From assembly GCF_021190955.1 (NCBI RefSeq), contig NZ_JAIOAO010000004.1:372001-436000 (forward strand): DNA of 64,000 nt. Direction: 5' to 3'. The notes beneath the pieces were generated by a model, which saw nothing but the letters and a program-made list of their open reading frames with translations, made no database searches and had not been told where the DNA came from. Shown here piece after piece: positions 2,532-56,257 of the stretch. The DNA comes from Parachryseolinea silvisoli (GTDB lineage: Bacteria > Bacteroidota > Bacteroidia > Cytophagales > Cyclobacteriaceae). How positions within the stretch are numbered: the first letter of the stretch is position 1; every line of letters starts with the position of its first letter. The translations under genes were made by a program, and so were the position numbers.

Positions 2532-2534
2532 TGG

Positions 2535-4968: not shown

Positions 4969-5018
4969 ACTACTACGGAAGTACTCACAAACACATCTCG
5001 AAATATTAACTTATAGTC

Positions 5019-6098: not shown

Positions 6099-6121
6099 TC
6101 ATCTCCTAACCAGCGAAAGAC

Positions 6122-9100: not shown

Positions 9101-9331
9101 GCCGGTGCGATCGGTAACCGTACCATTGGTGGCTCGGCTCTCGGGGGGATGTTGTTCGGTACCATCTTCGGTGTAATCATCATTCCGGGCTTATACTACA
9201 TCTTCGCGAAGATGGCCGATGGTCGTCACCTGATTAAACACGAAGACGAAGATTCCCTGACCGACAACCTGGTTCACCAGATAGACAGTTTTCCTCAATC
9301 CACTGAAACGGACGATAATGATGGACATTAA
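6122..9331 (+). CDS. RND multidrug efflux pump, HAE-1 (AcrB) family
   Basis: Proton-driven inner-membrane exporter of hydrophobic or amphiphilic compounds. At 1069 residues it has the full twelve-helix architecture with two large periplasmic loops. The proton-relay acidic pair is present in GIVVDDAIVVVEAV (TM4) and the TM10 lysine in LVGLLGKNAVLIVEFA. The start MFSKFIRRPVFAIVISI is the classical N-terminus. The end overlaps the outer-membrane factor gene by 14 nt. Substrate cannot be read from the sequence. Confidence 0.96.
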   Translation: MFSKFIRRPVFAIVISIVIVFVGVLAIKKLPISQFPDIAPTTVNIFIAYPGSSADVLVKSTLITLEQAINGVQDMRYIATDATSAGEATLRIIFEPGTDPNDAVIRVKTRVDQVMPLLPELVQREGVIITPIQPSMLMYVNLYSKEKSMDEKFLFNYATVKMIPEIQRTKGVARAQILGSRRYAMRVWLNPERMRAYKISVEEVMDAIGEQSIIGRPGRIGQSSGIAAQSLEYVLTYKGRYNKPEEYEGIIIRANSEGESIHLRDIATVELGSEFFDIYSNLDGHASAAIVLKQNYGSNASDVIAEVKAKLEVMKESFPPGMDYKISYDVSQFLDASIEQVIHTLRDAFILVAIVVFVFLGDWRSTLIPILAVPVSLIGAFFVIQFFGLSINLVTLFALVLAIGIVVDDAIVVVEAVHAKMEEEPHLTPYSAVRKVLGEISGAIIAITMVMVSVFVPISFMSGPVGTFYRQFSITMASSIVISALIALTLTPVLCAMLLKNHHGHARKKNFLTKGLDKFNSGFEKMTGRYVGLLKLIVNRRLVTFLILAAFCAGIWYENQVVPSGFIPNEDQGTIYAIIQTPPGSTLEKTNQVSQRLQKICEEIDGVESVSSLAGYEIMTEGRGSNAGTCLINLKPWSERHHTVKEIMEELEEESKGLGAVVEYFEPPAIPGFGTSGGFSMRMLDKTTDTDYHEFDAINKQFMDNLRKRKELTGLFTFFAANYPQYELEIDNNLAMQKGVSIGKAMDNLNILIGSTYEQGFIKFNQFFKVYVQSDPKFRRLPSDLLNLFVKNDRGEMVPYSAFMKLKKGQGPNEITRFNLYNSSAIQGLPAKGYTTADAIQAIREVAKETLPKGYDIAFEGLSYDESIRGNEALYVFLVVLLFVYFVLAAQYESFIIPLAVVLSLPVGVFGSFLMLQIMGLENNIYAQIGLIMLVGLLGKNAVLIVEFAVQKRQQGETIFNAAIEGARVRFRPILMTSFAFVAGLIPLILAHGAGAIGNRTIGGSALGGMLFGTIFGVIIIPGLYYIFAKMADGRHLIKHEDEDSLTDNLVHQIDSFPQSTETDDNDGH

Positions 9332-10760
9332 GATGAAATTGAATTCCATAGTAGCGATAGGCTGTATCCTTTTCCTGGTAACAGCGTGTAGCGTACCACC
9401 TTCTCTGGTGCATCGATCAGAGAATAAAACAACTCCTGCGAGCTTCAACGGCTCGCAGGACACTACGAATACCGCGAAGATAAAGTGGCGGCAATACTTT
9501 ACCGATCCGAATCTGGTGGCGTTGATCGATACAGCGCTTAAGAACAACCAGGAGCTGAACATCACGATCCGTGAGATCGAGATCGCCCGCAACGAAGTGC
9601 GTGCACGCAAAGGCGAGTACCTGCCGTTTCTGGGCATCCGCGCCGGCGCAGGGTTTGAAAAGGTAGGCCGCTATACCAACATCGGTGCCAGCGAAGCTAC
9701 GACCGACATCAAGCCTGGTAAAGAGACGCCCGAGCCACTGCCCGACTTTATGGTCGCCGCCGTGGCGAACTGGGAGCTGGACATCTGGCAGAAGCTGCGC
9801 AACGCGAAGAAGGCTGCGGTAAGCCGCTACCTGTCTTCTGTGGAAGGCCGAAACTTCATGGTCACCAACCTGATTGCTGAAATCGCTAATTCGTACTACG
9901 AGCTACTGGCACTCGACAACCAGATGGCGATCCTCCAGCAGAATATCGAGATTCAAAGCAACGTGTTGCAGATCGTACGCATGCAGAAGGACGCAGCGCG
10001 GGTGACCGAGCTGGCCGTGCGTCGGTTTGAGGCACAAGTGCTGAACACTAAAAGTCAGCTGTTCCTTATTCAGCAGAGCATCGTCGAAGCGGAGAACCGC
10101 ATTAACTTCCTGTTGGGGCGCTACCCGCAGCCGGTGCAACGAAATGCCGAAAGCTTTATGACCCTGGTGCCCGACAGCATTCACACGGGGCTGCCGGCAC
10201 AACTGCTGGCCAACCGGCCGGACATTCGCCAGGCCGAAATGGACCTGGCTGCCGCCAAGCTGGATGTAAAATCGGCACGGGCACAGTTCTATCCTTCGCT
10301 GGGTATCTCTGCCGGCATCGGCTTCCAGTCCTTCAATCCGTCGTACCTGATCCGCACACCCGAGTCGTTGATTTACTCGCTGGCGGGCGACCTGGTCGCA
10401 CCACTGGTAAACCGGAATGCCATTAAGGCGACGTACTACAGCGCCAACGCGCGGCAAATACAAGCGATCTATAACTACGAGCGTACAATCCTCAACGCGT
10501 ACGTCGAGGTTGTGAATCAGCTGTCGAAAATCAACAACATGAAGCAAAGCTATGTATTGAAAGAGCGAGAAGTGCAGGCGCTTACCGTGTCGATCACGAT
10601 CTCCGACAACCTCTTCAAATCGGCGCGCGCCGACTATATGGAGGTGTTGATCACGCAACGCGACGCACTCGAGTCGCGCTTCGAGCTGATCGAAACAAAA
10701 AAACAACAGCTCAACGCCATGGTCAATATCTATCAGGCATTGGGCGGCGGCTGGAACTAA
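9318..10760 (+). CDS. RND outer-membrane factor lipoprotein (TolC/NodT family)
   Basis: Forms the outer-membrane channel of the efflux system. The 480 residues start with a lipoprotein signal ending LFLVTACS and contain two OEP repeats, including the typical NWELDIWQKLRNAKKAA and LLANRPDIRQAEMDLAAAKLDVKSARAQFYP segments. It overlaps the pump gene, so translation is coupled. The operon ends at the terminator at 10787-10821. Confidence 0.95.
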   Translation: MMDIKMKLNSIVAIGCILFLVTACSVPPSLVHRSENKTTPASFNGSQDTTNTAKIKWRQYFTDPNLVALIDTALKNNQELNITIREIEIARNEVRARKGEYLPFLGIRAGAGFEKVGRYTNIGASEATTDIKPGKETPEPLPDFMVAAVANWELDIWQKLRNAKKAAVSRYLSSVEGRNFMVTNLIAEIANSYYELLALDNQMAILQQNIEIQSNVLQIVRMQKDAARVTELAVRRFEAQVLNTKSQLFLIQQSIVEAENRINFLLGRYPQPVQRNAESFMTLVPDSIHTGLPAQLLANRPDIRQAEMDLAAAKLDVKSARAQFYPSLGISAGIGFQSFNPSYLIRTPESLIYSLAGDLVAPLVNRNAIKATYYSANARQIQAIYNYERTILNAYVEVVNQLSKINNMKQSYVLKEREVQALTVSITISDNLFKSARADYMEVLITQRDALESRFELIETKKQQLNAMVNIYQALGGGWN

Positions 10761-10786
10761 AATATCAACTTCCGTTGAGATGTGGG

Positions 10787-10821
10787 GGCTCCCCTTGGCT
10801 TCGGCCGGGGGAGCTTTTTTT
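10787..10821 (+). terminator. Intrinsic terminator of the RND operon
   Basis: GGCTCCCC and GGGGAGC form a GC-rich stem around a loop containing CTTCGG, followed directly by a run of seven T. It lies 27 nt after the outer-membrane factor stop codon. Confidence 0.85.
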
Positions 10822-10824
10822 ATG

Positions 10825-10856
10825 GTTGAAGTTACTTTGTTGAAATGTTATCTTAG
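10825..10856 (+). promoter_or_regulatory. Candidate Bacteroidota promoter of the YciI-like gene
   Basis: GTTG at 10825-10828 (for the -33 TTTG) and TATCTTAG at 10849-10856 (7 of 8 with TAnnTTTG) are separated by exactly 20 nt and end 17 nt before the start codon. The site directly follows the RND terminator. Confidence 0.45.
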
Positions 10857-10873
10857 AAAATAAAAGCACGCCT

Positions 10874-11176
10874 ATGTTTGTAATTAACTTGCATTATATC
10901 GTATCGCTCGACGCGTTGGACGCCCACATGAAAGAGCACGTGGCGTTTTTACAAAAGTATTACAAGGAGGAGGTCTTTATCGCCTCCGGCCGCAAGGTGC
11001 CGCGCACCGGCGGCATTATCCTCGCCGTGGGCCGCTCGAAGGAGGAGATCGAAGGAATTATGCAGGAGGATCCGTTTTGTACAAACGGCCTGGCAGAAGT
11101 TACGGTAACGGAGTTTCTAACGTCGCAGACCCATCCGGCCTTCAAAAAGCTGCTCAAAGAGGTGTTTAACAGCTAG
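10874..11176 (+). CDS. YciI-like protein
   Basis: The 100-residue product matches the ferredoxin-like YCII fold: FVINLHYIVSLDALDAHMKEHVAFLQKYYKEEVFIASG, followed by GGIILAVGRSKEEIEGIMQEDPFCTNGLAEVTVTEF in short form. The His in HMKEH and the Asp in QEDPF occupy the positions of the proposed His-Asp active pair. YCII proteins have been linked to dehalogenase- or dehydratase-like chemistry, but most have no known role. Monocistronic between a terminator and a TPR gene. Confidence 0.85.
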   Translation: MFVINLHYIVSLDALDAHMKEHVAFLQKYYKEEVFIASGRKVPRTGGIILAVGRSKEEIEGIMQEDPFCTNGLAEVTVTEFLTSQTHPAFKKLLKEVFNS

Positions 11177-11215
11177 CGCGTTTTTTTGTATCTTCACGGG
11201 CATCTACCTGTTTGT

Positions 11216-13159
11216 ATGAGGATCAAGGCTTTTCTCGCGTTGGTGTTGTGGAGCATTACACTTTGTCCGGCGTTTGCGCAGCTGGAATGGTTAGGAGATG
11301 CCATTCGCGACTTTTCTACCAGTCAGTTTTGGGAATTTGAGCAGCTTTCCGTCGATTGGAAAATGAACCCCGCCCTGCAGGCTGATTTTAACGAAGGATT
11401 AAATAATCTCCTGGAGGATAATCCCGGGATGGCGGAGACAAACCTGACGGCGGTGATCGAAAAAGATCCAGCTGCCTGGCAGGCCTACTACTTTCGCGCC
11501 GCCGCCCGGAAAAAAATACAGAACCTCAGCGCTGCTCGCGAAGACGTCTTGAAGGCCCTCACGTTACACGATAATTTCTACGAAGGCCTGGTCGAGCTGG
11601 CTAAAATTGAATACCTCCGTCGTCGGGTAGCCGAAAGCGAGCAGATTATTAACAAAGCCATCCGCCTCGACCGGTCGCGGGGAGCGGCCTATTACCTGAG
11701 AGGTGATATCAATCTCGCGCAGCAGCAACTCCGGCCGGCCGTCAATAGTTATAAAGATTGCCTGGCCGCGGACAGCCTTTACCACGATGCACGGATCAAG
11801 CTGGCCTTACTCGATGCCTTTGAAAAGAATGATATTACCAAAGCCCTCGCACACCTGAACAGGGTCGTGGTAAATGATTCGCTGCAGCGAACGGCGCTGT
11901 TGTTCCGAAGCATTCTGGGACGTGAAAAGAATATACGCCAGTCCATAAAAGATTTATCTACGCTGATCCGGTTGCGCCCCAACGATGAGATGCCGCGGTA
12001 TTACCACGGATTATTCCTGATCGATATCGGTGATTATGAAGGCGCATTTAATGATTTTCAGACCGTGGTGATCAACCGCTCCGCCGTGGGTGACAACCAG
12101 TTTACAGGAAAACAGCAGGGTATAGATCGGATCATCAACGTGCAAAACGTGGGGGCCTATATCGTGCGGCGGATCTATGGATTGCCCGATGCCGATGCCG
12201 CCCGGATCAAAGAGGCCTTTTGCTTGTTACTGGTCGAAAAACATGATAAATGTATTGCCGCACTCGACCAGGTATCCAATGGTATGAAAGAGCCCTCGGT
12301 GGTATACCTAAAGGCCGTGGCCTACGAACACGATAAGCAACATCCCAAGGCGCTGCAATACTATGGTATTGCACTGGGGCTGGACGACAAGCTTACCGAC
12401 GCCTACAAAAAGCGCGGCATCTATCGGCAGGAGATGCAACAATGGGATAAATCGGTCGAGGATTTTACAGCCTATATCAAGCTCTTTCCCGACGGCTATT
12501 TCATTTATCGTATCCGCGGGGTTTCCTATTATTACCTGAAGCGTTATCCGGAAGCCATTGCCGATTATACCGCCTACTTAAAGAAAGATAGTAGTAACGT
12601 CGAAGTGCTTGGCAATCGGGGCATGGCCTACCAGATGTCAAAGCAGTGGATGAAAGCATACGTCGACTTTGCAGCATCCGGTAACCTTCATGCCGTGAAT
12701 TTTTCCCAGGTGGAAAAGATAGTCGACTCTGTTTTGCATGTAAAAGATACAGTCCAGGCCTTGTTCTATCTCGATACGTTTGTTAAGGCTGCGCCGGGAT
12801 TTACAGAAGGATATATACAGAAGTTTAAAATACACATGGCGCGCAACGAGTGGGCGCTCATATCGCCAGAGGTAGCGTTGGCCGTCATCCATGCCCGCAG
12901 TGATATTTCCAAACCGACACGTTCGTATCTCATGACCATGAGCGCGCTGCTGCAGGCCCGGTCCAGCGACACCAGCGAAGCTGTCAAGTCCCTCAACGAA
13001 GCCATCAAGTTCGATCTTAAAAACGATCTGGCCTACCTGGAGCGCGGCCGTATATACCTGGCCATGGGCAAGACCTCCAAAGCCGAAAGCGATTTTAAAG
13101 AAGCCTCGGCACTGGGCAATCAGCAAGCGAAGCAACTGCTCGCCTCGATGGTGAAATAA
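11216..13159 (+). CDS. Exported TPR-repeat protein
   Basis: The 647-residue product begins with a signal peptide (RIKAFLALVLWSITLCPAFAQ). I take Met at 11216 rather than an ATG 30 nt upstream because it gives a canonical signal peptide. Tetratricopeptide-like repeats run through most of the protein: residues about 55-260 (NPGMAETNLTAVIEKDPAAWQAYYFRAAARKK and similar), a second block about 360-490, and two more at the C-terminus (LAYLERGRIYLAMGKTSKAESDFKEA). No catalytic domain seen; probably a periplasmic or outer-membrane scaffold for protein contacts. Partners unknown. Confidence 0.85.
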   Translation: MRIKAFLALVLWSITLCPAFAQLEWLGDAIRDFSTSQFWEFEQLSVDWKMNPALQADFNEGLNNLLEDNPGMAETNLTAVIEKDPAAWQAYYFRAAARKKIQNLSAAREDVLKALTLHDNFYEGLVELAKIEYLRRRVAESEQIINKAIRLDRSRGAAYYLRGDINLAQQQLRPAVNSYKDCLAADSLYHDARIKLALLDAFEKNDITKALAHLNRVVVNDSLQRTALLFRSILGREKNIRQSIKDLSTLIRLRPNDEMPRYYHGLFLIDIGDYEGAFNDFQTVVINRSAVGDNQFTGKQQGIDRIINVQNVGAYIVRRIYGLPDADAARIKEAFCLLLVEKHDKCIAALDQVSNGMKEPSVVYLKAVAYEHDKQHPKALQYYGIALGLDDKLTDAYKKRGIYRQEMQQWDKSVEDFTAYIKLFPDGYFIYRIRGVSYYYLKRYPEAIADYTAYLKKDSSNVEVLGNRGMAYQMSKQWMKAYVDFAASGNLHAVNFSQVEKIVDSVLHVKDTVQALFYLDTFVKAAPGFTEGYIQKFKIHMARNEWALISPEVALAVIHARSDISKPTRSYLMTMSALLQARSSDTSEAVKSLNEAIKFDLKNDLAYLERGRIYLAMGKTSKAESDFKEASALGNQQAKQLLASMVK

Positions 13160-26224: not shown

Positions 26225-26256
26225 CTTGTTAAAATGCAGGCGACCGGCTACTTTCA
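26225..26256 (+). promoter_or_regulatory. Candidate promoter of the eight-gene hydrolase/oxidoreductase operon
   Basis: CTTG (26225-26228) and TACTTTCA (26249-26256; 6 of 8 with TAnnTTTG) are 20 nt apart. Transcription would start near 26263, just before the hairpin at 26265, and 80 nt before the first start codon. Confidence 0.4.
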
Positions 26257-26264
26257 CGTGGAGA

Positions 26265-26325
26265 GGGAGCCCATCTACCCATCGTCTGCTCATAGCAGAA
26301 GATGCGGAGGTGGGCTCCCTTTTTT
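26265..26325 (+). terminator. Leader hairpin with T-run (attenuator-like)
   Basis: Left arm 26265-26290 and right arm 26294-26319 form a roughly 26-bp stem (perfect GGGAGCCCA / TGGGCTCCC base, mismatched middle, 9 of 10 paired top) with a CAT loop, followed by six T at 26320-26325. No plus-strand gene lies upstream for about 4 kb, so it cannot simply end an upstream operon. Its position at the 5' end of the predicted transcript suggests attenuation or the end of a very short RNA. Confidence 0.65.
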
Positions 26326-26343
26326 GTTAACGACACGACGCGC

Positions 26344-27360
26344 ATGGTAAACGAGTTTGAAACGATCTCCTTTTTAACACAGGATGGTGTTACCTGTAAT
26401 CTGAAACATTTAAAGCGTAGTAAGTCGGGTGGTGAACCGGTGTTATTGGTGCATGGCGCCGGTGTGCGGGGGAATATCTTCAATCCTCCCACGGCGAAGA
26501 ATCTCATCACAACACTCGCGGAAGCCGGCTACGATGTGTGGCTCGAGAACTGGCGCGGTAGTATTGAAGTAACGCCCAACGAATGGGACCTCGACAAGAC
26601 CGCACGCTATGACCATCCCATGGCGGTACGGAAAGTCGTCGAGCTGACCGGCTATAACTCCATCAAGGCCATCATACACTGCCAGGGCAGCACCAGCTTT
26701 ATGATCTCGGTCATGCTGGGGCTTGTGCCGCAAGTCAAGCTCATCATCAGCAATGCCGTGTCGCTGCATCCCATTGTGCCACCGTACTCTGTCTTTAAGC
26801 TCAACGTTTTTGTGCCCGTTGTAAAGCTGCTCTTTCGGTACCTCAATCCCCAGTGGGGGCTGAAGGCGCCGGGTATAAAAGAAAAGCTCTTGCGCCTGAT
26901 TGTCAAAGCCACACACCGCGAGAAGGATACGCTCGTCGGCAAGTTCGTCAGCTTTACGTATGGTGCAGGGTTCCCCGCACTCTGGGAGCTGGACAACCTC
27001 GACAAGCCGACCATGGACTGGATTCAACACGAGTTTGCAAACGTGCCGCTTACATTTTTCGCGCACATCACGCGCTGTGTAAAGGCGGGTGTGCTGGTGC
27101 CCAATCAAAACGATACGCCAACCACCTACGCACCCGATCTTCCGCCGCTGACCGCGCGGGTGGTGCTGTTTGGCGGCCGCAAGAACAAATGCTTCCTGGC
27201 CGAAAGTCAGGAGCGGTCGTTCGACTACCTGCAACGCGTCGATCCTGGTATTCACAGACTTTATATACTGGAACAATACAGTCACCTGGATGTATTCCTG
27301 GGAAAGAATGCGCATCACGATGTATTCCCCCTCATGCTCCAGGAGCTTAGTCAATTATAA
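26344..27360 (+). CDS. Alpha/beta-hydrolase (cholesterol-oxidase-associated type)
   Basis: 338 residues from ATG 26344; an upstream ATG at 26302 lies inside the leader hairpin and is rejected. It has the alpha/beta-hydrolase core: oxyanion loop LLVHGAGVRGNIF, nucleophile region AIIHCQGSTSFM with Ser116 (a HCxGS form rather than strict GxSxG), and a C-terminal YSHLDVFLGKNAHHDVFP containing the likely catalytic His. This HCxGS / HLDxxxGKxA pattern resembles hydrolases that accompany, or are fused to, cholesterol-oxidase-like GMC enzymes, and such an enzyme ends this operon. Probably an esterase acting on a hydrophobic ester; substrate unknown. Confidence 0.85.
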   Translation: MVNEFETISFLTQDGVTCNLKHLKRSKSGGEPVLLVHGAGVRGNIFNPPTAKNLITTLAEAGYDVWLENWRGSIEVTPNEWDLDKTARYDHPMAVRKVVELTGYNSIKAIIHCQGSTSFMISVMLGLVPQVKLIISNAVSLHPIVPPYSVFKLNVFVPVVKLLFRYLNPQWGLKAPGIKEKLLRLIVKATHREKDTLVGKFVSFTYGAGFPALWELDNLDKPTMDWIQHEFANVPLTFFAHITRCVKAGVLVPNQNDTPTTYAPDLPPLTARVVLFGGRKNKCFLAESQERSFDYLQRVDPGIHRLYILEQYSHLDVFLGKNAHHDVFPLMLQELSQL

Positions 27361-27380
27361 CCCTCTTAATTTCGAAAAAA

Positions 27381-28265
27381 ATGCCTCCCTCCAGAATCAA
27401 ACACTATACAGGCCGGTATGCCCTGGTCGATAACATTCCCTATCAAATGCCGGTCTTTGCCAAAGACTCGCCGGCGTTAATGGCGGGTTTTTCCTGCGAC
27501 TGGAAAAAAGCAAACGACCTGCTGCCCGGCAATGAAGTGCACGCCCTGAAGCTCCCCAATGGCCGGGCCGCGTTGCTCATCACCGTCATTAACTATGTGA
27601 ACACCAGCATTGGTAAATACATCGAGTACAGCATCGCGATCGGCTGCACCCACGGCCGCAAGCCCGCGCCGGCACTGCTGAATGTGATGTTCATGAAAGC
27701 CTATGGCGTGGGACAATATATTCTCGACTTGCCGGTCAGCAGTGAAGTGTCCGTAAAAGGTGGAAAGGGCATTTGGGGCATGCCCAAGCATAAGGCCAAC
27801 CTGGACTTCAACGTGAGCGACACCGCTGTCAGCGCCCAGTATGAAAAAGATGGTCAGTTCGCGTTTCGCATCGAGATCGATCGTCCCAAATCCGCTTCGT
27901 TGGGCCTCAAGGTTGGCACCACCAACTATTGCTGTTACCGCAACATGCTGATGGCGTCGTATATCTACTTCAATTCCAGGGCCGGCATAAACCTCTTTGG
28001 AAAAGCCAGCGGCCGCTTGTTTATCGGCGATCATCCCAACGTGTCGTACCTGCGTAACCTCGACATCAACCCCGATCCGTTCTTTACCATGTTTATGCCC
28101 AAAGCAAACGGCATACTCGACGATCATTTCCAATGTTGGTTTATGACGTACGACACGCCGCCGGCCACCATGCCCGAAGGGTTTGAAAGTGTCTTCCACC
28201 TGGGCAGAAACGAGGATTGGTTGCCCGCACCTGCCTTTACCGACTACGCAAAGTATAAGCTATGA
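27381..28265 (+). CDS. Acetoacetate-decarboxylase-family protein
   Basis: 294 residues with the acetoacetate-decarboxylase-like barrel. The segment SSEVSVKGGKGIWGMPKHKANLDF corresponds, in pieces, to the region holding the Schiff-base lysine and its partner Glu/Lys of the family, although the classical EKxxK spacing is not obvious, so decarboxylase chemistry is uncertain. Many distant members catalyse aldol-dehydration or retro-aldol steps instead. Second gene of the operon, 20 nt after the hydrolase; its last bases overlap the next start (ATGA). Confidence 0.82.
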   Translation: MPPSRIKHYTGRYALVDNIPYQMPVFAKDSPALMAGFSCDWKKANDLLPGNEVHALKLPNGRAALLITVINYVNTSIGKYIEYSIAIGCTHGRKPAPALLNVMFMKAYGVGQYILDLPVSSEVSVKGGKGIWGMPKHKANLDFNVSDTAVSAQYEKDGQFAFRIEIDRPKSASLGLKVGTTNYCCYRNMLMASYIYFNSRAGINLFGKASGRLFIGDHPNVSYLRNLDINPDPFFTMFMPKANGILDDHFQCWFMTYDTPPATMPEGFESVFHLGRNEDWLPAPAFTDYAKYKL

Positions 28266-28735
28266 AGACAGTATTGGTGTTAAACAAGGCACTACTGTTT
28301 GCCTGTGTGTCCATGTATTTTGGCACGGGCTGGTCGCTGGTGCTCTTTACGTTTCCCATCGCACCCAAGCTCACGCCCGATAACTACTACAACCAGTTTG
28401 TGCCGCAAGTAACGGCGGCCACGCACTTCTTCACCTATATGACTATGGTGATGATGGTTTGCAGTGTCGTGTTTATTATCGAGACGTGGCGCAGCCGCGA
28501 CAAGTGGTACCCCATCGTCGTGCTTTTGCTGGTGGTAGCCGCCACGTTGCTGACCATCTACTTTATCATCGCGTATAACGAGCGCATGGCGGCGGGCATT
28601 ACCGACCCCATCGAGCTCAACACCGTACTCGACAAGTGGATGTTCTTAAATATCATTCGCGTCAGCCTGTGGACCCTGCAATGGCTCACCATGATGCTCT
28701 ATTTTTCAGTAGCACTCAAAAGACAACGCGCATGA
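28262..28735 (+). CDS. Four-helix membrane protein, unknown function
   Basis: 157 residues with membrane segments at about 8-30, 52-73, 82-104 and 128-150; an external loop contains NERMAAGITDPIELNTVLDKW. It resembles DUF1772-type proteins in layout but I cannot confirm the family. Start and stop overlap neighbouring genes as ATGA at both ends, so it is a true member of the operon. Confidence 0.7.
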   Translation: MKTVLVLNKALLFACVSMYFGTGWSLVLFTFPIAPKLTPDNYYNQFVPQVTAATHFFTYMTMVMMVCSVVFIIETWRSRDKWYPIVVLLLVVAATLLTIYFIIAYNERMAAGITDPIELNTVLDKWMFLNIIRVSLWTLQWLTMMLYFSVALKRQRA

Positions 28736-29118
28736 ATCGCTTTCTAAACTTGCTGGTCGTCGGCATCTCGCTGGCGACCATTGTGTCCGGCCTGGCGCAA
28801 GTCGTGGCGCCGGCCTTTGTGCTGGGTGTGATCGGCGCCGGGATAACCCCCACGACCGCGCACTTCTTTGCCATTGTCGGCATGTTCATGGCGCTCTTCG
28901 GCGGGTTGATGCTGCATACCGTTTACGGTGCGCGTTCCGGTACAGTGGCCATCCTGTGGTGCGCCCTGCAAAAGCTGGGTGCGTGTGTAGCGGTAGGGGT
29001 AGGAATTTTGCAGGGCATCTTTTCGGAGATGGCGGCCGGTGTGGCGGCGTTCGACTTGTTGTCGGGCGTACTGTTTCTCTATTATCTTAAAACTATAAAG
29101 TCGGGTGAAAGCGCTTAG
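28732..29118 (+). CDS. Small membrane protein, unknown function
   Basis: 128 residues from ATG 28732, which overlaps the previous stop (ATGA); a longer frame from 28636 would overlap the previous gene by 100 nt and is rejected. Four hydrophobic segments (about 5-25, 41-63, 70-90, 100-118). The VSGLAQVVAP...FFAIVGMFMALFGGLML pattern recalls DUF4345-like proteins, but this is only a resemblance. Confidence 0.7.
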   Translation: MNRFLNLLVVGISLATIVSGLAQVVAPAFVLGVIGAGITPTTAHFFAIVGMFMALFGGLMLHTVYGARSGTVAILWCALQKLGACVAVGVGILQGIFSEMAAGVAAFDLLSGVLFLYYLKTIKSGESA

Positions 29119-29521
29119 TTATTTTTTGTTCTATACCTACATTGGGTTGGTGATACTGGCCGGATTCTGGGGCGCCTTTGTCGGGCCACGCCTGGACCAC
29201 GCCTGGTTGTTCCACCTCGATACGAGCACGCTGCCCGAATACAGCCGCGTCAACCTCATCAGCCAGTACCGCTTCCTGCGGGCGCTGGAGCTGGGGTACG
29301 GGTTGTTCGCCGTGCTGTTTACCAAAGAGATCTTCACCCACAAGACGTTCAACGGCCTCTTCCTGTTGATCATGTTCTCCGGCGTCCTGGCGCGCGTGGT
29401 ATCCCTCGTGATCGACGGCTCGCCTTCGTGGCTGTTTTATTTCTTCCTGGTCTACGAGCTGCTTGGTGTCGTCGTCATCTTTCTCTACACCCGCAAAACG
29501 ACGCTGTATTATGACTACTGA
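29105..29521 (+). CDS. Small membrane protein, unknown function, GTG start
   Basis: 138 residues starting with GTG at 29105 inside the end of the previous gene (14-nt overlap). Hydrophobic segments at about 5-25, 60-80, 82-102 and 108-128, with a polar stretch DTSTLPEYSRVNLISQYRFLR in pieces after the first. Third of three consecutive small membrane proteins in the operon. Weak resemblance to DUF4345; function unknown. Confidence 0.68.
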   Translation: MKALSYFLFYTYIGLVILAGFWGAFVGPRLDHAWLFHLDTSTLPEYSRVNLISQYRFLRALELGYGLFAVLFTKEIFTHKTFNGLFLLIMFSGVLARVVSLVIDGSPSWLFYFFLVYELLGVVVIFLYTRKTTLYYDY

Positions 29522-30950
29522 TTCGCTCCTGGCATCCGCCGGTACACCCGTAAAAAAGTCATTGATCCTGGCCGGGGGTGGCGTGCGCCTGGCGTACCAG
29601 GCCGGTGTGCTGCGCGCCTTGCAAGAGGCGGGGCAGCAATTTGTACATGTCGACGGTACGTCGGGTGGGATTTTTAATACCGGCATGCTAGCCTCTGGGT
29701 TAGCGCCCGACGAGATTGCCGGGCGATGGCGTACCCTCAAGCTAAGGTATTTTGTCTCGGCGTTGGGCCTGAAGAGCTATCTCAAGCCGTGGCAAATGGC
29801 GGGCATGGGCGATGCCGATGGCATTCGCAAGCATATATTCCCTTCGTTGGGCATAGACCTGGAAAAGATCCGGAAGAACCAGCGCGGCCAGTTCACCTTC
29901 AACGTCTGTAATTTCTCGCAGAAGACCATCGAGTCGATCCCACACACGCGGGTCACCGAAGACCATCTCATCGCCGGTGTATCGCTGCCCATCTTTATGC
30001 CGGCGTTGCCCATCGATGGCCACTGGTATACCGACGCCGTGTGGATCAAAGACGCCAACCTCCTGGAAGCTGTACAACGCGGTGCCGATGAGCTCTGGCT
30101 GGTGTGGGCCATTGGCAATAGCCAAACCTACCTGCCCGGCTTTTTTAACCAGTACGTACACATGATCGAGATCAGCGCCAACGGCGCCCTGCTGGAAGAA
30201 TATAAACAGATAGCCTACATCAATGAGGCGATCAAAAGAGGCGACTCCGCGTACGGCCAACGGAAGCCCGTCAAACTGTTTGTGATCAAGCCCGAATATC
30301 CCTTGCCCCTCGATCCCGACCTGTTCTTTGGCAAGGTCGATACGCGGTCGCTGATCAACATGGGCTACGCCGACGCCAAACGCTGCCTGGCCGCAATGCC
30401 CGCGGAGGGCGTGCCGATGAACCATACCACCACCCGCATGCGCGAGCCTGGCCATCGCCTGAACTTTCGCGGTACGTTTGAAGGTACCGTATCCTGGCAA
30501 GGCGTAAAAACAAAGATGACGCTGTATACCTATTTCTCGTACCACGATATGGCGGGGCAGCATGTGCTGAAGCTCTACGCCAGTCTTGAGGCGTCGGTGC
30601 TTGGACGGGAGATTTCCCTGTACGATCTTACCGCGTCGGCTCGTAAGGTCGGGAAGTATCAGGTGGTGGAGGCAACAGCAAAAGCCGATCACGGTGGGGG
30701 TACATACCGCATGCACATGACATGGCGATTATATTCGCCGATGGATTTTCTCCTGGGATTGGAGTTCAAACACGTAGCGGTGGTCATTCACCTGAACGAA
30801 TCTACTGTCGTAAAAGGCACACTCGACCAATCCATTCGCCACCGCCTGCGCAGCTGGTTTACCACCGGCGTCGCGACCGAAAAGGGGGGGATGGGTGGAT
30901 TGAAAAAACGTTATGATCTGATATCAAAATTACTTTCGAATGGAATTTGA
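29511..30950 (+). CDS. Patatin-like phospholipase
   Basis: 479 residues from ATG 29511, which overlaps the previous stop; the longer frame from 29463 is rejected because it lies inside the upstream gene. The patatin domain (residues 15-300) has the oxyanion loop LAGGGVRLAYQAG, the nucleophile elbow GTSGG with Ser51, and a candidate dyad Asp in YTDAVWI where most members have DGG or DGA. The C-terminal 150 residues (from about 320) form a beta-rich region reminiscent of lipid-binding or DUF3336-less accessory domains; unassigned. Likely hydrolyses fatty-acyl esters at the membrane. Overlaps the metallophosphoesterase gene by 11 nt. Confidence 0.9.
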   Translation: MTTDSLLASAGTPVKKSLILAGGGVRLAYQAGVLRALQEAGQQFVHVDGTSGGIFNTGMLASGLAPDEIAGRWRTLKLRYFVSALGLKSYLKPWQMAGMGDADGIRKHIFPSLGIDLEKIRKNQRGQFTFNVCNFSQKTIESIPHTRVTEDHLIAGVSLPIFMPALPIDGHWYTDAVWIKDANLLEAVQRGADELWLVWAIGNSQTYLPGFFNQYVHMIEISANGALLEEYKQIAYINEAIKRGDSAYGQRKPVKLFVIKPEYPLPLDPDLFFGKVDTRSLINMGYADAKRCLAAMPAEGVPMNHTTTRMREPGHRLNFRGTFEGTVSWQGVKTKMTLYTYFSYHDMAGQHVLKLYASLEASVLGREISLYDLTASARKVGKYQVVEATAKADHGGGTYRMHMTWRLYSPMDFLLGLEFKHVAVVIHLNESTVVKGTLDQSIRHRLRSWFTTGVATEKGGMGGLKKRYDLISKLLSNGI

Positions 30951-32679
30951 GAAACGCCCCATGGTGAATTGGTACGACGTTCAGCAACTGGCGTCTACCG
31001 GTTTGAAAACATTGATCTCCGGCATCTTTGGAAACTTTGCCGATAAGCGGGAGATGGAAGCCGCGCTTTCGCCCGGTGCTTCTTATTACAACGCCGCGGA
31101 CAAAGAAGCGCTGTGGGTCGACTATGTCTCCGACCTGGGCGACGGCTTTAACCCGACCTATACCGTAGCCTATTCCCTGGCACAGGCGAAGCTTTCCGTG
31201 GGCGGACAAGAGCTGAAGCAGGGCGACCTTCTCATCATGGGCGGCGATGCGGTCTATCCCACACCGGAGGCTGCCGAGTATGAGAACCGGCTGCAAGGGC
31301 CGTACAACGCCGCATTCCCGTGGAAAGACAAGCCGCATCATACCGTAAACGAGCCCTATACCCGACAGTTGTTTGTCTTGCCGGGTAATCATGACTGGTA
31401 CGATGGGCTGGGTAATTTTATCAAGCTGTTTTGTCAGAAGCGGGCGTTGGGTCGCTGGCTGACAGAACAGGACCGAAGCTACTTTGCCGTCAGGCTTCCG
31501 CATAAGTACTGGTTGATCGGCATCGATATTCAACTGAATGCCGACATTGACAAACCACAGATGGACTACTTCCGGAAGATTCTGGAAACCCCGGCGTTTG
31601 AAGCCGGCAGCAAGGTAATTCTTTGTACGGCGGAGCCGTCGTGGGTATATAATTCGTGGGACGACAAAAATAAGTCGCACGGCCGTATTCAGTTTTTTAT
31701 CGACCGGGTGTTGTACGGCGACGAGAAGTGTCCCTACTATGAAAAGAACAAGGACCTGCGCATCGCGGCGATCCTGACGGGCGACCTGCATCATTACTCG
31801 CGCTACGAGCAAGTACATACTCAAACAGGCCGGGTGACGCAGCTCGTCACGGCGGGCGGTGGCGGCGCCTTTGCGCATCCCACACATTTGCTGAAGGAGA
31901 AGATTACCCTGGAGGGCGGCTATGACGCTACACGCAAAAGCTCATTTCCCACGGCATCACAATCGAAACGCCTGGCCTGGTGGAACCTGCTCTTTCCGTT
32001 CTTCAGCTTACAGATGTGGTTCTTCCTCGGCGCCTTCCACTTGTTTACAACCTGGTTTCTGCAATCGGGAAGCCGCGATACCGAAACATTCCTGGATGCG
32101 GTAAAACGCACGCCTGATCTCGGCAAGTTGTGCGCGCTCATTTACAACCATATCCGGCATAGCCCGTCCGTGGTATTTCTGAACTTGCTGCTCCTGGTGG
32201 GCCTTACATTTTTTACCGACACCGCCACGGGAAAGAAGAAATGGAATTACATCGCCGGGGCGCTTCATGGCCTGTTGCAGCTGCTGGTATTTTACCTGGC
32301 CGTCTGGGCCTTTGCCGTGGTCAATATGCACCATCTTCAATTGGACGTGCGGTCAGGCTGGCAAATCATATTGTTTTCGGCCGAGATGATCATGATAGGA
32401 GGCTGGGCCAGCACGATGGTCTTCGGCATATACCTGCTGGTGAGCACACTCGTCGTACGAAACCATCCGACCGAAGCATTTTCCTCCTTCCGGTGGGAGG
32501 GGTATAAAAACTTCTTGCGCATAAAGATCACCCCGGGCGGAGCGACGATCTATGCCATCGGTATCAAAAAAAGTATTACCGATTGGGAGGAACAAACGGT
32601 CGACGAGCATGCGGCCAGGTTCCGTCCGAAACAAACTATCGAATACACCCTCATCGATGAAATTACGTTGAAACCATGA
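30940..32679 (+). CDS. Membrane-anchored metallophosphoesterase
   Basis: 579 residues. The calcineurin-like domain spans about residues 60-320, with SDLGDGF (65-70), GGD (101-103), GNHD (149-152) and the late GDLHHYSRY motif; the first metal-site DxH is replaced by DLGD. Residues about 345-520 contain several hydrophobic helices (LLFPFFSLQMWFFLGAFHLF, VFLNLLLLVGLTFF, LLQLLVFYLAVWAFAVV), so it is an integral membrane enzyme. Gene order suggests it removes a phosphate or cleaves a phosphodiester from a lipid processed by its neighbours; this is inference. Confidence 0.88.
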   Translation: MEFEKRPMVNWYDVQQLASTGLKTLISGIFGNFADKREMEAALSPGASYYNAADKEALWVDYVSDLGDGFNPTYTVAYSLAQAKLSVGGQELKQGDLLIMGGDAVYPTPEAAEYENRLQGPYNAAFPWKDKPHHTVNEPYTRQLFVLPGNHDWYDGLGNFIKLFCQKRALGRWLTEQDRSYFAVRLPHKYWLIGIDIQLNADIDKPQMDYFRKILETPAFEAGSKVILCTAEPSWVYNSWDDKNKSHGRIQFFIDRVLYGDEKCPYYEKNKDLRIAAILTGDLHHYSRYEQVHTQTGRVTQLVTAGGGGAFAHPTHLLKEKITLEGGYDATRKSSFPTASQSKRLAWWNLLFPFFSLQMWFFLGAFHLFTTWFLQSGSRDTETFLDAVKRTPDLGKLCALIYNHIRHSPSVVFLNLLLLVGLTFFTDTATGKKKWNYIAGALHGLLQLLVFYLAVWAFAVVNMHHLQLDVRSGWQIILFSAEMIMIGGWASTMVFGIYLLVSTLVVRNHPTEAFSSFRWEGYKNFLRIKITPGGATIYAIGIKKSITDWEEQTVDEHAARFRPKQTIEYTLIDEITLKP

Positions 32680-35027
32680 AAAAGCTATCAAGACCCTTTC
32701 CTGAAATAAAAACACACTACGACGTCGTAGTGATCGGTTCCGGCTACGGCGGCAGCATTGCCGCCTCGCGCATGGCGCGCTGTGGGCAGAAGGTATGTTT
32801 GCTGGAGAAAGGCAAAGAGTTTTTGCCGGGTGAATTTCCCAGCAACCTGCGCGAAGCGACCAAACAGATGCAGTTCAACAAAGGCACGCTCGAGGCGGGA
32901 TCGGAAAATGGTCTGTATGAATTTGTACTCGGCAACGAGATCAACGTATTTAAAGGATGTGGCCTGGGCGGTACATCGTTGGTCAACGCCAACGTCGCGA
33001 TCGAGCCCGACAGCCGCGTCATGGCGGATGCCAGCTGGCCCGCCGCGATTCGAAATAACCTGACCGGATTTCAGGAAGGCATCCGCCACGCGTGCGATAT
33101 GCTGAAGCCCAATCCGTACCCCGAGGGTAAAAATGGATACCCCGTGCTGCAGAAGACCGAAGCCATGCGCACGTCGGCAAAATTTATGTCCGAAGAGTTC
33201 CGGCTGCTGAACATCAACGTCAACTTCGAAGACCGGTACCCCAACCACGTAGGCGTCGACCAACCCAAGTGCCTGAACTGCGGCGATTGCGTGACCGGTT
33301 GCAACACCGGCGCCAAGAACACCACGGCGATGAACTACTTACCCGACGCCGTAAACTTTGGTGCCGAGATCTACACCGAGGTGGGCGTAAAACATATTGA
33401 GCGCGATGACGCCCGCAACCTATGGCGGGTATACTATAACGCCGTGAACAGTGGCCGTGATAAGTTCGATGCTCCGTCGCTGTTTGTGGAGGCGGCCATG
33501 GTCTTCGTTAGCGGTGGCTCGTTGGGCAGCACCGAAGTCCTGCTGCGTTCGGCCAAAAAAGGCCTGGCCCTCTCGCCGCAGCTGGGGCAGAAGTTTACCG
33601 GCAACGGCGACGTGCTGGGGTTTGGCTATAACAACGACGTACCCATCCATGGCGTCGGCAAAGGCGACACCCTCAAGCCCGGCGTCATAGACCAGGTCGG
33701 GCCCTGCATCACCAGCGTAATCGACATGCGCAAACGCACACCGTTTACCGAAGGCATGACGCTGGAGGAAGGCAGCATCCCGGGGCCTATACGCTCCATC
33801 CTGGTGTCGGCGCTCGTCACGTTCTCCCGCGTCATGGGCCGCGACTCCGACCGCGGCCTGGGTGACTTCTTTCGCGAAAAGTGGCGCGAGGTGGTGAGTA
33901 TCTTCCGCGGGCCCTTCAAAGGCGCGGTAGATCACACGCAAATATACCTGGTTATGACCCACGACGACGGCAACGGTGTCATCGGGCTCAGTGGCGACGA
34001 TGAAGTCAACATCCACTGGAAGGGCGTCGGCAAACAGAACATCTTTAAAAAGGTAAGCGGCGAGCTCACCGGCGCCACGGAGGCCCTGGGCGGAAACGTA
34101 GTCCCCAATCCCACCTGGACCAGGATTCTGAACTACGATCTCGTCACCGTTCACCCGCTGGGCGGCTGCCCCATGGGCGAAGACGCCAGCCAGGGCGTCG
34201 TAGACCACAAGGGGCAGGTATTCAAAGGCGCCACCGGCAGCGAGCTATACCCCGGTTTGTATGTTATGGACGGCGCAATCTTCCCGCGTCCCGTCGGCAC
34301 GAATCCACTGTTAACCATCAGCGCCCTGGCCGAACGCAACTGCAAGCTCATCGCGCAGGAGAAGGGCTGGTCGTTGTCGTATGACTTACCGCCGCGCGCA
34401 TCGTCGTCTAACGGTCAGTCAAAACCGGGTGTACAATTCACGGAAACCATGCGCGGCTATTTCTCGATAAACGAAACGGCAGACTATGGCAGAGGCTTCG
34501 AAAAAGGCAAGCAGGAGAGCTCGCCGTTTGAATTTACGCTCACCATCCGCTCCGAAGACGTGGAGACACTTCTTTCCGACAAAGACCACGACGCCCCCAT
34601 GATCGGCACCATGACCGCGCCGGCGCTTTCTGCCTATCCGCTCATGGCCTACAACGGCCGGTTTAACCTCTTTGTAAGAGACGCGCAGGACGCGGAAAAG
34701 AAAAAGATGGTATATAACATCTACTTACAAAGCCACGAAGGGAAGAAGTATTATTTCGAGGGGTTCAAAGACGTGCAAAACAACAAGGGGCTGGATGTGT
34801 GGAAGGATACCACGACGCTCTTCATCACGGTCTACGAAGAAAACGGCGCAGGCAAGGTACTTGGCAAAGGCCAGCTGATCATCGAGCCCAAAGACTTTGC
34901 TAAACAGCTGACTACTATGAAAGCCGTTAATACACATACGAAGTTGGAACAAATCAAAGCAGTGTCAAGCTTTGGTAAGTTCTTTGCAGGCAATGTATTT
35001 GAAACATACTTTAAGAAACTACGGTAA
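32676..35027 (+). CDS. GMC oxidoreductase, cholesterol-oxidase-like, with four-cysteine Fe-S motif
   Basis: 783 residues. The FAD-binding Rossmann motif is VVVIGSGYGGSIAA (residues 17-30), and the GMC C-terminal signature TVHPLGGCPMGEDAS carries the active-site His. Residues 199-209 read CLNCGDCVTGC, a Cys-x2-Cys-x2-Cys-x3-Cys arrangement expected to ligate an iron-sulfur cluster, a feature of the bacterial cholesterol-oxidase-like subgroup rather than of sugar-oxidising GMC enzymes. A 190-residue C-terminal extension (from about 590) is beta-rich and unassigned. No signal peptide, so cytoplasmic or membrane-associated. Its start overlaps the previous stop (ATGA); last gene of the operon. Substrate is probably a hydroxylated lipid. 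Confidence 0.9.
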   Translation: MKKLSRPFPEIKTHYDVVVIGSGYGGSIAASRMARCGQKVCLLEKGKEFLPGEFPSNLREATKQMQFNKGTLEAGSENGLYEFVLGNEINVFKGCGLGGTSLVNANVAIEPDSRVMADASWPAAIRNNLTGFQEGIRHACDMLKPNPYPEGKNGYPVLQKTEAMRTSAKFMSEEFRLLNINVNFEDRYPNHVGVDQPKCLNCGDCVTGCNTGAKNTTAMNYLPDAVNFGAEIYTEVGVKHIERDDARNLWRVYYNAVNSGRDKFDAPSLFVEAAMVFVSGGSLGSTEVLLRSAKKGLALSPQLGQKFTGNGDVLGFGYNNDVPIHGVGKGDTLKPGVIDQVGPCITSVIDMRKRTPFTEGMTLEEGSIPGPIRSILVSALVTFSRVMGRDSDRGLGDFFREKWREVVSIFRGPFKGAVDHTQIYLVMTHDDGNGVIGLSGDDEVNIHWKGVGKQNIFKKVSGELTGATEALGGNVVPNPTWTRILNYDLVTVHPLGGCPMGEDASQGVVDHKGQVFKGATGSELYPGLYVMDGAIFPRPVGTNPLLTISALAERNCKLIAQEKGWSLSYDLPPRASSSNGQSKPGVQFTETMRGYFSINETADYGRGFEKGKQESSPFEFTLTIRSEDVETLLSDKDHDAPMIGTMTAPALSAYPLMAYNGRFNLFVRDAQDAEKKKMVYNIYLQSHEGKKYYFEGFKDVQNNKGLDVWKDTTTLFITVYEENGAGKVLGKGQLIIEPKDFAKQLTTMKAVNTHTKLEQIKAVSSFGKFFAGNVFETYFKKLR

Positions 35028-35047: not shown

Positions 35048-35242
35048 TTGCTGGCGCAAGTCTGAGGCCCGCCCCGGGCCGGAGACTTGTGACTGTCTCT
35101 GTAGCCAGTCTTAGACTGGCGGGGAGAACTGTTAATATAGCAGCCCCGCTTCGCGGGAACACGCCAGTCTAAGACTGGCCACAGTTTCAGTCACAAGTTC
35201 CGCACCTACGCTAACGCTTGGCGCTCAAACTTGCGCCAGCAA
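35048..35242. repeat. Nested palindromic intergenic repeat, copy A (full length)
   Basis: Outer arms TTGCTGGCGCAAG (35048-35060) and CTTGCGCCAGCAA (35230-35242) are perfect complements. Inside are ACTTGTGACTG (35085-35095) against CAGTCACAAGT (35188-35198), and two self-complementary units of the form GCCAGTCT-N-AGACTGGC (35104-35120 and 35163-35179) around a CCCGC-TTC-GCGGG hairpin. Closely related copies occur at 36562, 48653, 51608 and 52758. Confidence 0.85.
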
Positions 35243-36468: not shown

Positions 36469-36561
36469 AGAATATATAAATTTAGGTTACGAAAATTTTT
36501 GTTGTTGATGGTAGGAGTAAAACCGTTGAATAGCAGGAGTAAAGGAGAACCAAACGGGTGA

Positions 36562-36776
36562 CTGGCGCAAGAGTTAGCACCGAGCGTTAGCGTAGGTGCG
36601 TCTCTTGTGCCTTGCATGCTGCCAGTCTTCAGACTGGCGTGTGGGGTGAGGGTGGTCGGGCAACCCCAGGTACATGTATGGTTACCCAGGTTACGACGTT
36701 CCCGCCTGGCAGTCGGAGACTGCCGCCATACTGGGCACGAGTCTCCGCCCCGAGACGGGGCTAAGACTCGCGCCAG
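36562..36776. repeat. Nested palindromic intergenic repeat, copy B (diverged)
   Basis: Starts with CTGGCGCAAGAGTTAGCACC, contains AGCGTTAGCGTAGGTGCG and a GCCAGTCT-TC-AGACTGGC palindrome (36621-36638), a second element CTGGCAGTCGGAGACTGC (36706-36723) and ends GACTCGCGCCAG. The right half has diverged more from copy A. Confidence 0.75.
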
Positions 36777-36800
36777 ATACTACGTTGGCAGCACCCCCCG

Positions 36801-56150: not shown

Positions 56151-56177
56151 ATAGTCGTCGTGAACACCGAAAATACA

Positions 56178-56257
56178 GCCCTGAAAGGGCGTAATACAAT
56201 AGCCCAGGCCTTCGCTATCGCTCCAGCCTGGGCTATTATGTCACACCCCTTCGGGGC
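56178..56257. repeat. Three-hairpin intergenic repeat (different family)
   Basis: GCCCT-GAA-AGGGC (56178-56190), AATAGCCCAGGC (56198-56209) with its perfect complement GCCTGGGCTATT (56226-56237), and CCCC-TT-CGGGG (56247-56256) lie in series after the GH2 stop codon. The layout resembles short palindromic repeats that occur in many copies in Bacteroidota genomes. Also a possible transcription end between two convergent genes. Confidence 0.65.

What the first reader, a model, noticed from the sequence alone, without database searches (positions are those of the whole stretch)
26225..35027. Eight-gene coupled operon: hydrolase, ADC-like, three membrane proteins, patatin, phosphoesterase, GMC oxidase
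Seen: eight plus-strand genes with ATGA or 11-14 nt overlaps at six of seven junctions. Known: HCxGS-type alpha/beta hydrolases occur with or fused to cholesterol-oxidase-like GMC enzymes; patatins cut acyl esters; metallophosphoesterases remove phosphate. Inference: the set could deacylate, dephosphorylate and oxidise a membrane lipid or sterol-like alcohol, with the acetoacetate-decarboxylase-like protein acting on a later keto product. I know of no described pathway with this gene set. No sterol biosynthesis genes are seen here, so the substrate could be hopanoid-, isoprenoid- or environmental sterol-derived.
Basis: partly seen in the sequence, partly recalled or inferred. Interest (0 to 1): 0.78.

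Follow-up and report, generated by a model that had tools for sequence, protein, structure and literature searches.

The report
Conserved uncharacterised eight-gene lipid-redox operon
A tightly packed set of eight genes, carried together by some bacteria of several phyla, looks like an undescribed, membrane-associated pathway that trims and oxidises a lipid, with an oxidising enzyme that seems built to pass its electrons on rather than to oxygen.

Summary
Eight + strand genes lie at 26347-35027, with overlaps of 4, 4, 14, 11, 11 and 4 nt at six of seven junctions. Orthologues of the ADC-like gene were found at 45 other loci; 34 of the 45 carry all five enzyme families together (6 of the other 11 are cut by contig ends) and 17 carry all eight genes. 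They come from Bacteroidota, Acidobacteriota, Pseudomonadota and one actinomycete plasmid. The set is rare and patchy: 2 of 7 genomes of the genus, 4 of 395 of the phylum.

New points. (1) The GMC enzyme carries CX2CX2CX3C (38 of 42) or CX5CX3C (4 of 42), the ligand spacing of the 3Fe-4S cluster of FAD-glucose dehydrogenase, so it is probably a dehydrogenase rather than an oxidase. (2) The hydrolase has the fold of gastric/lysosomal acid lipase with Cys in place of the catalytic Ser. (3) A beta-rich domain without a Pfam family sits on GMC or on patatin. (4) GMC, this domain and a hydrolase paralogue are one protein elsewhere.

Most likely function: deacylation, dephosphorylation and oxidation of a lipid, with processing of the keto product; substrate and order of steps are unknown. 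Nine searches of open-licence papers found no described pathway.

The parts
26263..26325 (+). Leader hairpin followed by a T-run, terminator-like, upstream of gene 1; possible attenuator
   Evidence: Fold of 26225-26345: -52.4 kcal/mol, z -4.96, 0 of 200 shuffles as good; same hairpin with compensating stem changes in Dawidia soli L010; not seen by eye in 14 other leaders printed; single copy in the genome; coordinates
26347..27360 (+). g1 ABH: acid-lipase-fold alpha/beta hydrolase with Cys112 nucleophile (HCQGS)
   Evidence: HCQGST plus a downstream N-x-C-F motif in 45 of 45 orthologues, window included; AlphaFold2 model pLDDT 89.8; Foldseek best hits gastric and lysosomal acid lipases, E 4e-19 to 3e-17; profile alignment puts Cys112 on the lipase Ser of the H-S-Q-G motif
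27381..28265 (+). g2 ADC-like (acetoacetate decarboxylase superfamily), keeps candidate Schiff-base Lys136
   Evidence: PF06314 51.1 bits, cut-off 29.8; GMPKH in 46 of 46 orthologues, window included; Lys136 and Glu82 also kept in three ADC-family proteins of 20-21% identity
28262..28735 (+). g3 TMa: small membrane protein, weakly anthrone-oxygenase-like
   Evidence: PF08592 matches 13 of 19 members at E <= 0.01; window member below cut-off; alignment A6
28732..29118 (+). g4 TMb: small membrane protein, no Pfam match in the window copy
   Evidence: 2 of 17 members match DUF4345 weakly; alignment A7
29105..29521 (+). g5 TMc: DUF4345 membrane protein, GTG start; absent at a number of related loci
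   Evidence: PF14248 54.1 bits, cut-off 26.5; alignment A8; absences
29511..30950 (+). g6 patatin-like lipase/acyltransferase with a C-terminal extension of about 170 aa of unknown kind
   Evidence: PF01734 71.1 bits, residues 19-180; (G/A)-x-S-G-G in 42 of 42, window included
30940..32679 (+). g7 calcineurin-type metallophosphoesterase with C-terminal hydrophobic segments (by eye)
   Evidence: PF00149 24.2 bits, cut-off 21.5; 15 of 15 aligned members match; alignment A4
32676..35027 (+). g8 GMC flavoenzyme, cholesterol-oxidase-like, with a predicted Fe-S cysteine motif (Cys199, 202, 205, 209)
   Evidence: PF00732 and PF05199 above cut-off; Cys motif; HPLGG and GTNP regions align with cholesterol oxidase
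34398..35027 (+). C-terminal beta-rich domain of g8 (no Pfam family); found on the patatin instead in the Pseudomonadota and Acidobacteriota loci
   Evidence: Pfam 0 of 19; model pLDDT 88.8, no PDB match at E <= 0.001; position per locus

Best explanation
The eight genes encode one inherited, membrane-associated pathway that remodels an acylated, phosphate-bearing lipid. Proposed working: the patatin removes (or moves) an acyl chain and the metallophosphoesterase a phosphate, exposing an alcohol; the GMC flavoenzyme oxidises the alcohol and sends the electrons from FAD through an Fe-S cluster to the membrane, probably to the quinone pool through one or more of the three small membrane proteins; the ADC-like protein acts on the resulting keto product through a Schiff base on Lys136 (decarboxylation or aldol/dehydration); the Cys-nucleophile acid-lipase-fold hydrolase moves or releases the acyl group. 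The beta-rich domain that sits on GMC or on patatin is taken as a shared lipid-holding or docking part. Shown here: linkage, co-inheritance, family assignments, conserved catalytic residues, the Fe-S ligand pattern, domain swapping and fusion. Inferred: presence of the Fe-S cluster, electron route, substrate class, intracellular location (no export signal seen by eye; not tested). Guessed: order of steps.
For: Conserved unit in four phyla with rearranged orders. Pairwise distances of ABH, ADC, MPE and GMC correlate 0.80-0.94 and of PAT with the others 0.62-0.65 over 32 loci (pairs not independent, no permutation). CX5CX3C in 42 of 42 GMC proteins, 38 with the fourth Cys; the spacing equals Cys212/218/222, the 3Fe-4S ligands of Burkholderia FAD-GDH (PMC6719666, passages); three further GMCs of the own genome also have CX5CX3C. 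Intact catalytic motifs. GMC, domain and ABH paralogue in one ORF, with a g7-family metallophosphoesterase gene beside it in Azospirillum. In G636 and G644 a metallophosphoesterase-type ORF that does not match the g7 profile follows GMC, suggesting that this place has been filled more than once.
Against: No substrate evidence. L026 lacks all three membrane proteins and the patatin; L061 lacks MPE and GMC; L042, L059, L060 and L061 lack the membrane proteins at the locus, so an electron route through them is not obligatory. None of the eight genes is a cytochrome by Pfam, unlike FAD-GDH. The phosphoesterase has D-x-G-D in place of the textbook D-x-H (recalled motif), so its activity is unproven; of the two extra phosphoesterase-type ORFs only one has a Pfam match, just under the cut-off (21.4 against 21.5 bits). 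The model of the beta-rich domain matches nothing in the PDB at E <= 0.001, so lipid binding is only a guess.
Confidence: 0.35

Rival explanations
1. Sterol or triterpenoid ester use: the hydrolase frees an esterified polycyclic alcohol, the GMC oxidises its 3-OH and the ADC-like protein removes a beta-keto carboxyl, as in a C4-demethylation-like step.
For: Closest structural neighbours of the hydrolase are gastric lipase and lysosomal acid lipase/cholesteryl ester hydrolase; closest solved relatives of the GMC are cholesterol oxidases.
Against: GMC far below NCBIfam's cholesterol-oxidase cut-off, 145.7 against 850 bits; Cys instead of Ser in the hydrolase; role of patatin and phosphoesterase unexplained.
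Confidence: 0.17
2. Acyl-transfer pathway: the Cys hydrolase acts as a PHA-synthase-like acyltransferase or thioesterase, the patatin as an acyl donor, and the set builds a storage or envelope lipid rather than degrading one.
For: Cys nucleophile in 50 of 50 hydrolases examined, 45 orthologues and 5 distant paralogues; PHA synthase among the five PDB relatives at E <= 0.01 (E 4.6e-4); a distant paralogue lies between thioester-reductase and crotonyl-CoA carboxylase/reductase genes on a Rhodococcus plasmid.
Against: Apart from the eight genes and ORFs antisense to them, the only neighbours recurring in more than six of 32 loci are one three-gene block, with no ketosynthase, ACP or ligase; neighbours recurring in six or fewer loci were not annotated. 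GMC and ADC not obviously needed.
Confidence: 0.2
3. Specialised-metabolite pathway making a small redox-active aromatic or quinone-like compound, with TMa as an anthrone-oxygenase-like enzyme.
For: TMa matches anthrone oxygenase weakly in 13 of 19 members; patchy, accessory distribution.
Against: No PKS, NRPS or terpene synthase among the eight genes or the one widely recurrent neighbour block; TMa below the Pfam cut-off in the window member.
Confidence: 0.1
4. Unrelated neighbours held together by chance or general operon packing.
For: Dense overlaps are common in bacteria (general knowledge).
Against: Same families linked in four phyla, rearranged but kept together; in the genus, ADC and hydrolase are present or absent together, 2 of 7 genomes, while the upstream flank is in all 7.
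Confidence: 0.02

Closest known systems
GMC-domain-hydrolase fusion proteins on Rhizobium, Azospirillum and Bernardetia plasmids (annotated 'alpha/beta fold hydrolase' or 'GMC oxidoreductase'; no functional description found)
   Same: GMC with CX2CX2CX3C, same beta-rich domain, Cys-elbow hydrolase paralogue; g7-family metallophosphoesterase gene beside it in Azospirillum
   Different: One polypeptide; no ADC, patatin or small membrane genes detected in the 20-kb regions taken; hydrolase part only about 28% identical
FAD-dependent glucose dehydrogenase (Fe-S GMC dehydrogenase, PMC6719666, passages read)
   Same: GMC family, CX5CX3C cysteine ligand spacing
   Different: It has a multihaem cytochrome c subunit and a hitchhiker subunit for export to the periplasm; neither is among these eight genes. 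Most members here have a fourth Cys
Cholesterol oxidase (PDB 4u2l, 1b4v and others)
   Same: Closest solved sequence relatives of the GMC; HPLGG and G-x-NP regions conserved
   Different: No cysteine cluster in the aligned stretch and no C-terminal domain (about 500 aa); uses O2 (recalled)
Gastric lipase and lysosomal acid lipase (1hlg, 1k8q, 6v7n)
   Same: Fold and N-terminal sequence of the hydrolase
   Different: Cys in place of catalytic Ser; different domains of life
Acetoacetate decarboxylase superfamily (PF06314)
   Same: Pfam match above cut-off; conserved Lys and Glu
   Different: Own subfamily with GMPKH; no PDB sequence matched at E <= 0.1

Membership tests
Cholesterol oxidase | NCBIfam cholesterol oxidase model at its cut-off | tested here: not met
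   NF058674 145.7 bits against cut-off 850
Cholesterol oxidase | GMC family with catalytic His and Asn (roles recalled) | tested here: met
   HPLGG and GTNP aligned with cholesterol oxidase 4u2l
Cholesterol oxidase | Oxidises 3-beta-hydroxysterols with O2 | not testable with these tools
   Needs enzyme assay
Fe-S GMC dehydrogenase (FAD-GDH type) | CX5CX3C cluster ligands | tested here: met
   42 of 42 GMC proteins, spacing of Cys212/218/222; no direct alignment with FAD-GDH over the motif was made
Fe-S GMC dehydrogenase (FAD-GDH type) | Multihaem cytochrome c and hitchhiker subunits encoded alongside | tested here: not met
   None among the eight genes by Pfam; rest of the genome not searched
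Fe-S GMC dehydrogenase (FAD-GDH type) | Bound Fe-S cluster | not testable with these tools
   Needs EPR or iron analysis
Acid lipase family | Fold | tested here: met
   Foldseek E 4e-19 to 3e-17, next hits from 2.6e-11
Acid lipase family | Ser nucleophile | tested here: not met
   Cys112 aligned with the lipase Ser; 45 of 45 orthologues
PHA synthase | Cys nucleophile in the lipase box (recalled) | tested here: met
PHA synthase | Matches a PHA synthase family model | tested here: not met
   None in Pfam or NCBIfam scans at E <= 0.01; one weak PDB profile match
Acetoacetate decarboxylase superfamily | PF06314 at cut-off | tested here: met
   51.1 against 29.8 bits
Acetoacetate decarboxylase superfamily | Schiff-base lysine (recalled as Lys115 of the Clostridium enzyme) | tested here: inconclusive
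   Lys136 invariant in 46 of 46 orthologues and three distant relatives; no solved ADC could be aligned and the Clostridium plasmid was not held
Patatin-like phospholipase | PF01734 at cut-off and the (G/A)-x-S-x-G elbow | tested here: met
   71.1 against 27.7 bits; 42 of 42
Calcineurin-like metallophosphoesterase | PF00149 at cut-off; GNHD and terminal HH motifs | tested here: met
   24.2 against 21.5 bits; GNHD in 6 of 6 and GD-x-HH in 5 of 6 loci examined, the miss being the Azospirillum protein
Calcineurin-like metallophosphoesterase | First motif D-x-H (recalled) | tested here: not met
   D-x-G-D-G in 6 of 6 loci examined
Anti-phage defence gene | PADLOC model match | tested here: not met
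   0 of 5 enzymes scanned; the three membrane proteins were not scanned

The most novel reading that the evidence does not exclude
A previously undescribed bacterial lipid pathway in which an Fe-S GMC dehydrogenase couples oxidation of a membrane lipid alcohol to the quinone pool through dedicated small membrane proteins, with a thiol-based acid-lipase-fold enzyme and a Schiff-base keto-acid enzyme making or breaking an unknown class of membrane lipid; the set spreads horizontally between lineages.
Probability: 0.3. Interest if true: 0.82.

Novelty: new variant of a known kind. Interest (0 to 1): 0.62.

Why it matters
A cluster found together in four phyla, shuffled but not dispersed, most likely does one job, and none is described for it in the papers searched. 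It offers testable chemistry: a lipid-type GMC enzyme that may be a respiratory dehydrogenase rather than an oxidase, an acid-lipase fold turned to thiol chemistry, and a new domain shared between a lipase and an oxidoreductase. It would also help annotate GMC-hydrolase fusion proteins.

Tried and rejected
Rejected: chance linkage; single-strain oddity; anti-phage defence for the five enzymes; a wider conserved cluster: apart from the eight genes and ORFs antisense to them, the only neighbours recurring in more than six of 32 loci are a DUF4230/DUF4230/N-acetylmuramidase block in 14 loci, on the opposite strand in the locus examined (L012), taken as flanking synteny.

Led nowhere: PDB sequence matches for the ADC-like protein, alone, as a profile or through relatives, and for the phosphoesterase; profile link between the beta-rich domain and the Bacteroidota patatin C-terminus (hhalign probability 0.5 percent: not supported, so I do not claim that the window patatin carries that domain); PDB fold match for the domain (best E 0.035); hairpin conservation beyond the closest relative.

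Limits: loci were collected mainly through the ADC-like gene, so clusters without it are under-sampled (searches show that partial sets exist). The tree has long branches outside Bacteroidota and open forks inside it, so direction of transfer is unsure. Gene starts in relatives were set by the start codon nearest to the expected place, so single junction lengths may be off. In L032 the phosphoesterase is split in two frames and in L021 the GMC is cut by a contig end; both are counted as present.

Full report
Observation. The window holds eight + strand genes from 26347 to 35027. The patatin start is ATG 29511; the first gene most likely starts at 26347, since the 26302 ATG lies inside a strong leader hairpin and relatives align from 26347. 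The window lies in a 619-kb contig of a 7.9-Mb genome. A congener's contig (G1275 C78, 246,534 bases) has the same length as the Dawidia soli contig of L010, so the host is probably a close relative of Dawidia (inference).

Conservation. A scan with the ADC-like protein returned 35 loci. Profile searches and a recount give 45 loci with an ADC orthologue outside the window. Of the 45, 34 have hydrolase, ADC, patatin, phosphoesterase and GMC together (in L011 and L021 the GMC is cut by a contig end) and 17 have all eight genes. Of the other 11, six are cut by contig ends (L017, L020, L022, L036, L040, L041). L026 lacks the membrane proteins and patatin. L059 and L060 lack the g7 orthologue but have another ORF after GMC: in L060 it matches Metallophos at 21.4 bits (cut-off 21.5), in L059 it has no Pfam match but is 55.5% identical to the L060 one. 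L061 has only hydrolase, ADC and patatin; L080 lacks the phosphoesterase. Two main orders occur: ABH-ADC-TM-PAT-MPE-GMC in most Bacteroidota loci, and MPE and GMC before ABH in L065, L078 and the Arthrobacter plasmid (L080 has only GMC there, L062 only MPE, with GMC at the far end). So [MPE, GMC] and [ABH, ADC, TM, PAT] behave much like two blocks.

Rarity. Genomes with a match to the ADC-like protein or profile: 8 of 291 of the order, one of them weak; 4 of 395 of the phylum; 2 of 7 of the genus; 4 of 398 of the phylum of the Lysobacterales locus L042; 2 of 199 of the phylum of the Acidobacteria locus L041; seed genomes included. The hydrolase is in the same 2 of 7 genomes of the genus and absent from the same 5; the other six genes were not searched there. 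All six other congeners have at least part of the upstream flank, while the downstream flank is found only in the two carriers. In the five non-carriers homology to the window stops between about 26120 and 26170; the genes that follow, read for four of the five, are not the operon and are of three kinds. The set is therefore accessory.

Tree. A tree of ABH+ADC places Marinilabiliaceae and Prolixibacteraceae rows among Cytophagales rows with open forks, and puts G281, of the window's order, with Sphingobacteriaceae and Chitinophagaceae rows with full support but on a long, flagged branch. This suggests transfer without proving it.

Co-inheritance. Over 32 loci with all five enzymes (window included; L011, L021 and L032 left out as incomplete or split), pairwise protein distances of ABH, ADC, MPE and GMC correlate at 0.80-0.94 (Spearman); patatin is looser, 0.62-0.65. 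Pairs are not independent and no permutation test was made.

GMC enzyme. Its nearest solved relatives are cholesterol oxidases (E 5.5e-15 as a single sequence, 8.6e-37 as a profile). It differs by a cysteine motif. Of 42 GMC proteins with at least 200 bits (window, 36 other loci with an ADC orthologue, L063, and L086-L089, which have none), 38 have CX2CX2CX3C; the other four (L062 and L063 from Acidobacteriota, Arthrobacter L085, Pseudonocardia L086) lack only the second Cys and keep CX5CX3C. The crystal-structure paper of Burkholderia FAD-glucose dehydrogenase states that its 3Fe-4S cluster is held by Cys212, Cys218 and Cys222 and passes electrons from FAD onward (PMC6719666, passages read): the same spacing. 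The three other GMC proteins of this genome also have CX5CX3C. I therefore predict an Fe-S dehydrogenase. This is sequence inference; no metal has been shown and no residue alignment with that enzyme over the motif was made.

Hydrolase. The AlphaFold2 model (pLDDT 89.8) matches gastric and lysosomal acid lipases far above all else (E 4e-19 to 3e-17, next 2.6e-11). A profile search of PDB sequences gives the same three, plus PHA synthase and a putative esterase, at E <= 0.01. In that alignment Cys112 sits on the lipase Ser. HCQGST and a following N-x-C-F are in 45 of 45 orthologues, window included; five distant paralogues also have Cys. The third triad member could not be checked, as model coordinates were not among the script files. 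Invariant Asn280 is a candidate, by position only.

ADC-like protein. Above the Pfam cut-off. Lys136 and Glu82 are invariant even in ADC-family proteins of 20-21% identity. Their match to Lys115 and Glu76 of the Clostridium enzyme is recalled, not tested.

Beta-rich domain. GMC residues 575-783 form a domain without a Pfam match (0 of 19 members) and with a confident model (pLDDT 88.8). The patatin ORF carries it in L042, L059-L063, L065, L078 and L080; L065 and L078 have it on both proteins. In Rhizobium, Azospirillum and Bernardetia, GMC, this domain and a hydrolase paralogue form one open frame of 1,164-1,178 aa.

Other parts. The patatin elbow (G/A)-x-S-G-G is intact in 42 of 42. The phosphoesterase has GNHD in 6 of 6 and GD-x-HH in 5 of 6 loci examined, but D-x-G-D-G instead of D-x-H. 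The membrane proteins are conserved families, one weakly anthrone-oxygenase-like, one DUF4345.

Reading. The simplest account is one pathway that deacylates and dephosphorylates a lipid, oxidises the exposed alcohol with electrons going to the membrane, and processes the keto product. The general reading (one lipid-directed redox pathway) I hold at about 0.7; the full mechanism at 0.35. Sterol-like, acyl-transfer and specialised-metabolite readings remain open. Nine paper searches found no paper on this gene set (for member combinations; 50, 83, 104, 105 for related enzymes and fusions; some searches listed papers, of which I read passages of one, PMC6719666). Only open-licence papers are held in that library.

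Noticed in passing
window 26263-26325: Terminator-like hairpin with T-run in the operon leader, shared with Dawidia soli L010 with compensating stem changes, not seen by eye in 14 other leaders; possible attenuator.
   Followed up: partly
window 35200-35242 and about 36549-36786: Short dispersed repeats with dozens of matches in this genome and in congener G1275 (67 and 43 matches to the query, own place included) and none in the five other congeners.
   Followed up: no
window 56177-56232, minus strand: Acido-Lenti-1 RNA match, 41 bits against a gathering score of 37.
   Followed up: no
L090 (Rhodococcus sp. PD04 plasmid) 1-11497: Distant hydrolase paralogue next to thioester-reductase and crotonyl-CoA carboxylase/reductase genes, suggesting a thioesterase-type role for the wider family.
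   Followed up: no
L012 17666-20882, minus strand, and 13 other loci: Two DUF4230 proteins and an N-acetylmuramidase recur near the operon in 14 of 32 loci.
   Followed up: partly
G000:C6:1189544, C7:1055387, C6:1601804: Three further GMC proteins of the genome with CX5CX3C, possibly of the sugar-dehydrogenase type.
   Followed up: no
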